This document shows, in pieces, positions 3,075-32,846 of a DNA stretch of 64,000 nucleotides. How positions within the stretch are numbered: position 1 is the stretch's first letter; the number at the start of each line of letters is the position of its first letter. Both the position numbers and the translations under genes were made by a program. The notes under the pieces are model-generated. The model had not been told where the DNA came from and ran no database searches. It saw only the letters and a program-made list of their open reading frames with translations. Origin of the DNA: Pseudomonas sp. BSw22131 (GTDB taxonomy: Bacteria > Pseudomonadota > Gammaproteobacteria > Pseudomonadales > Pseudomonadaceae); assembly GCF_026810445.1 (NCBI RefSeq), contig NZ_CP113949.1, positions 124,001-188,000 of the forward strand, read 5' to 3'.

Positions 3075-4628
3075 ATGACACCGTCAAAGCCCTCGCTGAC
3101 CTTCGACTTCGCCGGTATCGAACTGGACCCGCGTCAGGGCCTTAGCCGTCAGCTTTACCAAGGCCTGCGCCAGCGGATTCTCGACGGTCGTCTGGGCGGT
3201 GGCACGCGCTTACCCGCCAGCCGGGATCTGGCGGCGTTGTTGTCGATCTCGCGTAATAGCGTGATGCGCGCATACGACCAGCTTTACGCCGAAGGCTTCA
3301 CTGAGGGGCGTGTTGGCGATGGGACTTACGTCGCTCATCTGCCCGACAAAACCACCGCTACGAAAAAACTATCCACAAAACTGTCCACAGGGTTAACAAC
3401 AGGCTTACCCACAGGTTTATCCACAAAACCGACCAAGCCCACTGATTTTTTATCCAGTAAAGTTATCCACAGCACTGCGCTGATGCTGCTTGATCGGCAC
3501 CATTTGAGCGAGCGTAAAACCGGCTTACCACGCGCTTTTCGAGTGGGCCTGCCAGCGTTTGACCTGTTCCCTTTTGCAGTGTGGGGCAAGTTGCACTCGG
3601 ATTTCTGGCGAAAGCCCGACATGCAGCAACTCGGTTACGGCGACGCCGCAGGGGAGTGGCGTCTGCGAGAGCTGATCGCTGTCTACCTGCGCACCTCTCG
3701 AGATTTGCACTGCTCTGCTGAACAAATTGTGATCACCAGTGGTGCGCAACAAGCAATTAGCCTTTGTGCACAGCTGCTGTTAGAGGTTGGCGACGGCGTT
3801 GCTGTGGAAAACCCCGGCTATCGCGCTGCCGGTCATGCTTTTGCGATTGCTGGTGCGACCTTGCACGGTATTTCGGTGGACAGCGAGGGCATAAGCTGTG
3901 ACGAGTTGGCCAGGCACGACAGCAAGCTTGTGTATGTCACGCCGTCTCATCAGTACCCGACCGGGGTCACGATGAGTCTGGCGCGGCGTCTTCAATTGTT
4001 GGCGTGGGCCGAACGAACCGGCGGCTGGATCGTGGAGGACGACTACGACGGGGAGTATCGCTACGGCGGTGCGCCATTGGCTCCGCTGGCGGCGCTGGAT
4101 CGGCAGGGTCTGGTGCTTTATGTCGGCACCTTCGGCAAAGTGGCGTTTCCTGCGCTGCGGTTGGGTTATCTGGTGTTGCCGCTGAGCCTGGTCGAGCCCT
4201 TCTGCCAGCGGCGTGCTGTGGACATGCGTCACTCTGAGATAGGCACCCAAGCGGTGATGGCCGAGTTCATCGCCGCCGGGCATTTCCAGCGGCATATCCG
4301 TCGCATGCGCCGCGCCGCGCCGAGTCGGCGTAATGCTTTGCTGTCGGGCTGGCCTGACAGTATTGCGGGGTGCGGGCCGATGCCCAAACCCATGGCGGGT
4401 CTGCACGTAGCATTAAAGGTCGACAGCCTGGCACGCGAGCAGGCGCTGGTCGCGCTGGCTGACAGCGTAGGCGTTGAGGTCAATGCATTGAGTGAATACT
4501 GGCTGCCGGATTCTTCAACGCCCATTGATGAGCGGGCAGGGTTGGTGCTGGGGTTCGCGGCGGTGCCTGAGGCAGATATCGAGCTGGCGCTGGAGAAGCT
4601 GCGCGCGGTTTGGAGCATGCGTCAGTAG
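3075..4628 (+). CDS. MocR-family transcriptional regulator (GntR winged helix fused to aminotransferase fold)
   Basis: The protein has 517 aa. Residues ~15-95 form a GntR-type winged helix (LSRQLYQGLRQRILDGRL, GTRLPASRDLAALLSISRNSVMRAYDQL). A linker at ~95-140 leads into a fold-type I aminotransferase domain with the PLP lysine in GTFGK (K355). MocR proteins use bound PLP to sense a ligand and control nearby genes. The likely targets are the divergent PaiB/GNAT pair. The linker is unusual: five tandem tetrapeptides of the form (K/G)-L-(S/T/P)-T, encoded by a 12-base repeat that also spells DnaA boxes. Rare TTA leucine codons are concentrated there. Confidence 0.93.
   Translation: MTPSKPSLTFDFAGIELDPRQGLSRQLYQGLRQRILDGRLGGGTRLPASRDLAALLSISRNSVMRAYDQLYAEGFTEGRVGDGTYVAHLPDKTTATKKLSTKLSTGLTTGLPTGLSTKPTKPTDFLSSKVIHSTALMLLDRHHLSERKTGLPRAFRVGLPAFDLFPFAVWGKLHSDFWRKPDMQQLGYGDAAGEWRLRELIAVYLRTSRDLHCSAEQIVITSGAQQAISLCAQLLLEVGDGVAVENPGYRAAGHAFAIAGATLHGISVDSEGISCDELARHDSKLVYVTPSHQYPTGVTMSLARRLQLLAWAERTGGWIVEDDYDGEYRYGGAPLAPLAALDRQGLVLYVGTFGKVAFPALRLGYLVLPLSLVEPFCQRRAVDMRHSEIGTQAVMAEFIAAGHFQRHIRRMRRAAPSRRNALLSGWPDSIAGCGPMPKPMAGLHVALKVDSLAREQALVALADSVGVEVNALSEYWLPDSSTPIDERAGLVLGFAAVPEADIELALEKLRAVWSMRQ
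3369..3471 (+). other. Cluster of DnaA-box-like nonamers inside the MocR linker
   Basis: Two perfect DnaA boxes TTATCCACA lie at 3417-3425 and 3463-3471. One-mismatch copies are CTATCCACA (3369-3377) and TTACCCACA (3405-3413), and two-mismatch copies are at 3381-3389 and 3450-3458, all in the same orientation within 103 bases. Four of the six are in the same codon phase (Leu-Ser/Pro-Thr or Leu-Ser-Ser), but the last perfect box is read in another phase (Val-Ile-His), so the nonamer recurs independently of the peptide. Whether DnaA binds here is not known from sequence. Confidence 0.6.
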
Positions 4629-32712: not shown

Positions 32713-32715
32713 TGA

Positions 32716-32846
32716 GCTTCAAGCTTCAAGCTTCAAGCTAAAAGCTACAAGCTACAAGCTACAAGCTACAAGCTACAAGCTACAAGCGGAAGGCCAAAGC
32801 CAGCCGCAGTTTTTTTACTTGCGGCTTGCAGCTTAAAGCTTGCAGC
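32716..32846. repeat. Heptamer-array inverted repeat with terminator-like core, between pstA and pstB
   Basis: Ten tandem heptamers (three GCTTCAA, one GCTAAAA, six GCTACAA; 32716-32785) face four heptamers in inverted orientation (TTGCGGC, TTGCAGC, TTAAAGC, TTGCAGC; 32819-32846). The centre (32786-32816) contains GCGG-AA-GGC CAAA GCC-AG-CCGC followed by AG and seven T, an intrinsic-terminator-like hairpin. The arms pair with about one mismatch per heptamer. A shorter member of the same family is at 56930-56997. Confidence 0.85.

What the first reader, a model, noticed from the sequence alone, without database searches (positions are those of the whole stretch)
3369..3471. DnaA-box cluster inside the MocR linker
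Six DnaA-box-like nonamers, two perfect (TTATCCACA), lie in one orientation within 103 bases of coding sequence. They come from a 12-base tandem repeat encoding a (K/G)L(S/T/P)T peptide, but the last perfect box is read in a different codon phase, so the peptide alone does not explain the motif. A random 9-mer is expected about once per 130 kb per strand at even base composition. By general knowledge of Pseudomonas genomes this region lies not far from oriC, so a DnaA-titrating (datA-like) or DnaA-regulated site is conceivable. An isolated perfect box also occurs in purK, so single hits are not remarkable.
Basis: partly seen in the sequence, partly recalled or inferred. Interest (0 to 1): 0.75.

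Follow-up and report, generated by a model that had tools for sequence, protein, structure and literature searches.

The report
DnaA-binding site hidden inside a gene
Inside the coding sequence of a regulator gene close to the replication origin, many Pseudomonas species keep the same row of binding motifs for DnaA, the protein that starts chromosome copying, which suggests a replication-control site written into a gene.

Summary
Codon choice shows that DNA, not peptide, is conserved: TTA 97-98% in two array columns against 3% elsewhere in the gene, ACA 91-100% against 9%. Of 182 orthologs 146 carry the array, and all 146 carry both extra parts; none of the 36 others has the extra box, though 12 match the Fis consensus. 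In 46 of 49 array-bearing genomes the gene lies 49-158 kb from dnaA on the same side. The 3-base gaps match the paired boxes E. coli DnaA prefers in vivo (PMC11317965). Most likely it is an origin-proximal, datA-like DnaA-binding control site dual-coded with a protein; DnaA-controlled transcription is the main rival. No conserved IHF consensus was found and binding is untested, so it is not filed as datA or DARS. A second, intergenic DnaA locus about 10% of the chromosome from dnaA was noticed.

The parts
3075..4628 (+). mocR gene: GntR-type winged helix + class I/II aminotransferase domain (517 aa), host of the element
   Evidence: ORF; Pfam GntR and Aminotran_1_2
3369..3377 (+). DnaA box 1, CTATCCACA (1 mismatch)
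   Evidence: at most 1 mismatch to TTATNCACA in 109 of 121 array-bearing orthologs
3381..3389 (+). DnaA box 2, CTGTCCACA (2 mismatches)
   Evidence: at most 2 mismatches to TTWTNCACA in 121 of 121
3393..3401 (+). weak unit 3, TTAACAACA
   Evidence: weakest unit, mean 2.2 mismatches over 146 orthologs
3405..3413 (+). DnaA box 4, TTACCCACA
   Evidence: at most 1 mismatch to TTATNCACA in 119 of 121
3417..3425 (+). DnaA box 5, perfect TTATCCACA
   Evidence: perfect in 139 of 146 orthologs
3426..3462 (+). 37-bp spacer of variable sequence and fixed length; holds a weak TTATCCAGT at 3450-3458
   Evidence: box 5 to box 6 start distance 46 in 120 of 123 orthologs scored with a sixth box; of the other three, two are off by one 12-bp unit (34, 58) and one (L065) is a register error of my script, seen on its sequence
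3463..3471 (+). DnaA box 6, perfect TTATCCACA in another codon phase (VIH)
   Evidence: missing in 23 of 146 array-bearing orthologs; GTT codon 98% against 8% background where Val is encoded
3720..3734 (+). Fis-consensus site GAACAAATTGTGATC (GnnYAnnnnnTRnnC)
   Evidence: 121 of 121 array-bearing orthologs; the only aligned Fis consensus conserved at 90% or more in the gene; also matched by 12 of 36 array-less orthologs
3764..3772 (+). further DnaA-like box TTGTGCACA (1 mismatch to TTATNCACA)
   Evidence: 121 of 121; codons CTT TGT GCA in 120, 120, 119 of 120 against 2, 5, 3 of 23 in the other set

Best explanation
A DnaA-binding replication-control site that is dual-coded with the MocR protein. 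Shown by sequence: a run of head-to-tail DnaA-box units with 3-bp gaps, a sixth box at a fixed 46 bp, a Fis-consensus site about 250 bp on and a last DnaA-like box, kept at the DNA level across a large part of the genus and close to oriC. Inferred: DnaA oligomerises head to tail along the array, Fis bends or shapes the DNA towards the outlying box, and because the locus is copied soon after initiation the doubled site withdraws (or, as at datA, helps inactivate) DnaA and so discourages re-initiation. The MocR interdomain linker tolerates the odd peptide that this requires.
For: Rare synonymous codons fixed in the array; the same nonamer kept in two codon phases; peptide-preserving null; box 5 to box 6 distance fixed while the 5' flank varies from 30 to 132 bp; Fis consensus and extra box present in 146 of 146 array-bearing orthologs, extra box in 0 of 36 others, and all decayed together in the nested loss L182/L212; six further genomes read afterwards all show array, Fis word and extra box (6 of 6). 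3-bp-spaced box pairs, often weak then perfect, are what E. coli DnaA binds in vivo, at datA and oriC among others, and one added base between the boxes strongly lowers binding (PMC11317965, results section read). Essential datA boxes all point one way (PMC5742627, passages). Side and distance: 46 of 49 array-bearing genomes at 49-158 kb from dnaA. Perfect boxes fall from 25 per 100 kb within 50 kb of oriC to 0.23 near the terminus in this genome.
Against: No binding or replication data. No conserved IHF consensus in the gene, although datA and DARS2 need IHF (passages). Nearness to the origin is not tied to the array: array-less relatives G113, G078, G138, G060, G187, G120 and G008 have mocR about 63-127 kb from dnaA too, while G029 keeps the array 1,335 kb away. 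23 of 146 array-bearing orthologs lack box 6. The loss lineage lives without the element; one member has mocR about 158 kb from dnaA (L212, if the two contig names are the same contig) and the other at least about 975 kb away (G129). The Fis consensus is partly forced by the encoded peptide: 12 of 36 array-less orthologs also match it. Orthologs share descent; the tree needs only two changes of state.
Confidence: 0.55

Rival explanations
1. DnaA and Fis bound inside the gene control transcription: they block or modulate elongation of mocR, or drive or repress an internal or antisense promoter, tying this PLP-type regulator and its divergent FMN-binding/GNAT neighbours to the cell cycle.
For: DnaA is a known transcription regulator (PMC8203912, abstract start in listing and passages). 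The element is in a regulator gene and stays with that gene when the gene lies elsewhere (G029).
Against: Sites lie about 290-700 bp inside the gene, not at its promoter. The multi-box phased array exceeds what a simple repressor site needs. Promoters were not looked for.
Confidence: 0.25
2. A DARS-like site that reloads DnaA with ATP with the help of Fis.
For: Length (404 bp against 455 bp for DARS2), several DnaA boxes plus a distant Fis-type site.
Against: The DARS core has box I opposite to II and III (PMC5742627 section 20); here the conserved boxes point one way. DARS2 needs IHF; no conserved IHF consensus found.
Confidence: 0.09
3. The boxes are conserved by another DNA-binding factor or process that happens to use TTATCCACA-like repeats (for instance MocR binding its own gene).
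For: No binder was tested; MocR-type proteins do bind direct repeats (recalled, not tested).
Against: The motif is the exact DnaA consensus with the DnaA-preferred spacing, and the one variant of the extra box (TTGTTCACA) changes the free N position of the DnaA consensus.
Confidence: 0.08
4. The repeat is just a slippage-prone (K/G)LSTG peptide linker and the boxes are incidental.
For: The unit is a 12-bp tandem repeat in frame.
Against: Codon choice, the two-frame box, fixed spacing, peptide-preserving null and coupling to parts 250-300 bp beyond the last box.
Confidence: 0.03

Closest known systems
datA of Escherichia coli (DnaA-ATP hydrolysis / titration locus)
   Same: Cluster of DnaA boxes outside oriC, essential boxes head to tail, on the origin side of the chromosome, holds a 3-bp-spaced double box.
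   Different: datA is non-coding and needs IHF; this one is coding, has a Fis-consensus site and no conserved IHF consensus, and lies at 0.9-2.6% (46 genomes) instead of about 10% of the chromosome from the origin.
DARS1 / DARS2 of Escherichia coli
   Same: DnaA boxes plus a Fis site within about 400-450 bp (DARS2).
   Different: Inverted box I of the DARS core is missing; no conserved IHF site; coding.
oriC-proximal DnaA-box clusters (DBCs) of Bacillus subtilis
   Same: Clusters outside oriC; removing all six gives early initiation, taken to show sensitivity to free DnaA (PMC5295017 passages).
   Different: Different phylum; the same review calls their role minor; Fis part and coding position not described in the passages seen.
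Origin-proximal enrichment of DnaA boxes in E. coli/Salmonella (Olivi 2025, PMC12371093, abstract and passages)
   Same: Gradient of DnaA boxes towards oriC, seen here too.
   Different: That work is on overall density; this is one fixed multi-part element. The word Pseudomonas does not occur in that main text.

Membership tests
datA | several DnaA boxes in one orientation | tested here: met
datA | IHF-binding site between or beside the boxes | tested here: not met
   no aligned WATCARNNNNTTR with at most 1 mismatch in 80% or at most 2 in 90% of 121 array-bearing orthologs; consensus scan only
datA | non-coding | tested here: not met
   lies in an open mocR reading frame
datA | promotes DnaA-ATP hydrolysis / represses re-initiation | not testable with these tools
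   needs biochemistry and flow cytometry
DARS | core with box I opposite to boxes II and III | tested here: not met
   conserved boxes are on the + strand; only the palindromic part of the extra box also gives a minus-strand match with 2 mismatches
DARS | Fis site (DARS2) | tested here: met
   consensus only, 121 of 121; binding not tested
DnaA-box cluster (general) | more clustered boxes than chance | tested here: met
DnaA-box cluster (general) | bound by DnaA | not testable with these tools
   no ChIP or footprint at hand
MocR family (host protein) | GntR helix domain fused to an aminotransferase-like domain through a linker | tested here: met

The most novel reading that the evidence does not exclude
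A large branch of Pseudomonas carries a replication-initiation control module written into protein-coding sequence: a DnaA array plus Fis site plus outlying box within mocR near oriC, working together with a second, intergenic DnaA locus about 10% of the chromosome from oriC as this group's counterparts of datA and DARS.
Probability: 0.35. Interest if true: 0.87.

Novelty: new variant of a known kind. Interest (0 to 1): 0.74.

Why it matters
In the papers seen, datA and DARS-type control loci are described for E. coli and relatives and box clusters for Bacillus and Streptomyces. Among the titles listed by nine paper searches (the longer result lists were cut, and 'datA' also matched 'data') I saw none on such a locus in Pseudomonas. 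A dual-coded site would show that replication control can be hidden from annotation inside a regulator gene, would explain an odd linker peptide, and can be tested by silent recoding without touching the protein.

Tried and rejected
Peptide-only explanation: rejected by the peptide-preserving null and codon analysis. Exact 46-bp pair as a signature beyond the genus: found in 6 of 293 genomes of the order, 4 of them in the window's own genus; the other two (G251, G392) were not examined. IHF site: looked for, not found. Known RNA in the region: one hit far below its gathering score, outside the element. Extra box as a standard oriC box: TTGTGCACA occurs in only 1 of 19 oriC regions compared, the window's own genome, against TTATGCACA in 8, so it stays 'DnaA-like'. 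Loss of the array because the gene left the origin region: G129 fits, L212 does not. Near-origin position as proof of function: weakened, since array-less relatives have mocR near dnaA as well. An FAD/NAD(P)-binding gene with six perfect boxes was tried as a control for 'near-origin genes in general'; only 2 of 25 genomes have it, so it is no good control. A weaker synonymous island at codons 170-177 was left out of the element. One search stopped on a script error and was rerun. A Fis-size protein is encoded in the genome (106-aa ORF with an HTH_8 hit; called Fis from recall).

Limits of the counts: of 199 sampled genus genomes 143 were read at the locus for the alignments, and 7 more later (G113 and six, checked). 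Of the 80 loci, 41 entered the tree (two near-copies were dropped, 182 rows), 5 more were only checked for boxes and 34 distant ones were not looked at. 'Array' means 3 or more nonamers with at most 1 mismatch in the linker; the first sorting (120 and 23) used 2 or more T[AG]TCCACA and put the weak array L064 on the wrong side, so 121 is used. One search used rounded chromosome lengths for 19 of 55 genomes; one search repeats it with exact ones and is the one cited. The extra parts were found by scanning and are post hoc; six genomes read afterwards agree.

Full report
What was claimed and what is there. Counting single boxes is not informative (4 TTWTNCACA in the window against 2.77 expected); the phased cluster is. 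In the whole 5.74-Mb genome a tandem pair TATCCACAN4TATCCACA with at most one mismatch occurs only twice, both times in this array, with none in the reversed control. Over the 39 genomes of that search 38 have a match somewhere; the array-less genomes have 0-2 matches, none at the mocR place, and the reversed control hit once each in G160 and G041. Redrawing codons for the same peptide 100,000 times gave two perfect boxes 6 times and four near-perfect boxes never.

Position. The window is G000:C1:124001-188000. dnaA starts at 5,737,718 on the minus strand; between it and an rpmH-like ORF (named from recall) lie four perfect boxes. The mocR midpoint is 129.4 kb from there, 2.3% of the chromosome. 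Perfect boxes are strongly concentrated around the origin: 25 per 100 kb within 50 kb, 9-10 at 50-150 kb, 0.2-2.5 further out (105 boxes in all against 18 for the reversed control).

Conservation of DNA, not peptide. Orthologs were read from 143 of 199 sampled genus genomes. In the 120 first classed as array-bearing, codons of the array are those that spell the boxes: TTA 98% and 97% in two Leu columns against 3.2% of Leu elsewhere in the gene; ACA 91-100% in five Thr columns against 8.8%; TCC 99-100% in three Ser columns against 14%; and in the last box, read in another phase, GTT 98% against 8%. Other columns are less fixed: box 1 Leu CTA 67%, unit 3 Leu TTA 69% and Ser TCA 79%, unit 4 Ser TCC 58% (where Ser is the residue in 52%). 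Twenty-one degenerate columns of codons 99-134 average 0.91 modal-codon frequency, 354 elsewhere 0.62. Box 5 is perfect in 139 of 146 orthologs. The distance from box 5 to box 6 is 46 in 120 of 123 scored; two of the exceptions differ by one 12-bp unit (34, 58) and the third (L065) is a register error of the script. 23 of 146 lack box 6. The distance from the G-x-G-T-Y motif to the first unit varies from 30 to 132 bp in the 144 where it could be measured. So array and spacer are length-fixed while the flank is free.

Two more parts. A scan of synonymous conservation along the gene showed, besides the array, islands at codons 215-222 and 229-233 (excess 0.40 and 0.37 in the array-bearing set, 0.17 and 0.12 in the other); a weaker one at codons 170-177 was left out, and stretches such as codons 302-332 are about equally conserved in both sets. 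The first island contains GARCAAATWGTGATC, which fits the Fis consensus used for DARS2, GnnYAnnnnnTRnnC (PMC4245941, passages), in 121 of 121, the only such aligned site in the gene conserved at 90% or more; the second is TTGTGCACA, at most one mismatch from TTATNCACA in 121 of 121. It is encoded by Leu-Cys-Ala-Gln. By the codon table the three free positions (CTT, TGT, GCA) all carry the base that matches the box, and the one mismatch is forced by Cys. On 182 rows array, Fis consensus and extra box occur together in 146; of the 36 others none has the extra box and 12 have the Fis consensus. So the Fis part is the weaker evidence, since the encoded peptide alone often yields it. The tree needs two changes of array state; L182 and L212 are the nested loss, and there array, Fis site and extra box are all degraded. 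Six genomes read only after this was worked out show all parts (6 of 6).

Who has it. Named carriers include P. frederiksbergensis, P. lini, P. antarctica, P. fragi, P. putida HAI-2, P. fulva and P. alkylphenolica; named non-carriers include P. xionganensis, P. panipatensis, P. marincola, P. oryzihabitans, P. borbori and P. putida ASAD. P. fulva has TTGTTCACA as its extra box, a change at the free N position of the DnaA consensus.

Distance to the origin in relatives. With exact contig lengths, 46 of 49 array-bearing genomes have mocR 49-158 kb from the dnaA start (median 86 kb, 0.9-2.6% of the chromosome), on the rpmH side and opposite to dnaA. The linker was read in all 49. G094 (+276 kb) and G125 (+134 kb) lie on the other side in the other orientation, and G029 is 1,335 kb away, where the intergenic locus below is displaced too. 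Six array-less genomes scatter (1.3 to 38% of the chromosome), and by coordinates four more (G060, G187, G120, G008) have mocR at 63-93 kb, so nearness to the origin is not caused by the array.

How it probably works. E. coli DnaA in vivo prefers pairs of boxes 2-3 bp apart, often a weak one followed by a perfect one, for instance at datA and oriC; one extra base between them strongly reduces binding (PMC11317965, results section). This array is a run of five such units with 3-bp gaps ending in a perfect box. datA's essential boxes all point the same way (PMC5742627 passages), as here; the DARS core has an inverted box, unlike here. I therefore favour a datA-like or titrating role with Fis as architectural partner, confidence 0.55, and DnaA-dependent transcription control as the chief rival, 0.25. 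P. putida Fis sites were predicted with the E. coli matrix and tested by footprint (PMC5612765 passages), and this genome encodes a 106-aa Fis-like protein. Against datA membership: coding position and no conserved IHF consensus.

Literature. Nine searches aimed at this question listed no title on datA, DARS or DnaA-box clusters outside oriC in Pseudomonas, nor on DnaA boxes in a MocR linker. Several lists were cut (for instance 20 of 86, 12 of 54), and the library lacks most subscription journals. The two papers holding MocR, linker, Pseudomonas and DnaA together mention MocR and linker once each (listing only). A review passage reports 12 DnaA boxes at the P. putida dnaA promoter and no autoregulation seen there (PMC8203912).

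Second locus seen in passing. The phased-pair search also hit an intergenic stretch between livF-like and short-chain dehydrogenase-like genes (named from recall) with five to six boxes, mostly one orientation, and conserved spacers in four genomes aligned. A BLAST search with one of them found it in 32 of 39 genomes, 29 at E below 1e-15; the query's end is a dispersed repeat, so the three weak hits (G065, G110, G164) may be chance, and five of the six array-less genomes searched have none. In 28 placed genomes it lies at a median of 10.4% of the chromosome from dnaA, 26 of 28 between 8.4 and 12.8%, on either replichore. By the map positions given in PMC5742627 (94.7 and 84.6 min) E. coli datA sits at about 10%. 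This may be the better datA counterpart, with the mocR element as an additional, coding one.

Noticed in passing
L277-L280, L289-L317; window's own genome about C1:789104-789595: Intergenic DnaA-box locus between livF-like and SDR-like genes with 12-bp phased boxes (TTTAACCACAGACTTATCCACAGG) and conserved spacers, at a median 10.4% of the chromosome from dnaA in 28 genomes: a datA/DARS candidate of Pseudomonas.
   Followed up: partly
L035:5375-7204 (C1 about 85-87 kb); L319, L320: A FAD/NAD(P)-binding gene about 88 kb from oriC holds six perfect DnaA boxes in its coding sequence; the two orthologs found (57% identity, 2 of 25 genomes searched) have six each within the matched stretch.
   Followed up: partly
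C1:5335105-5338955 (L039): Nine perfect boxes within 3.9 kb, in and beside ORFs that look like electron-transfer flavoprotein genes (names recalled).
   Followed up: no
C1:3073-3260 (L031): Box cluster upstream of a gidA-like ORF, possibly the second known Pseudomonas origin-type region (gene name and origin remark recalled).
   Followed up: no
L066-L068: Three relatives carry an extra in-frame stretch of linker (linker 106 residues against 79 here) in front of an intact box array.
   Followed up: no
L281, L282: TTTTACCCACAGCGTTATCCACAG phased pair upstream of a reading frame that looks like nrdA, a DnaA target in E. coli (gene name recalled).
   Followed up: no
window 32715-32787: AGCTACA repeated 10.4 times, 95% matches.
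   Followed up: no
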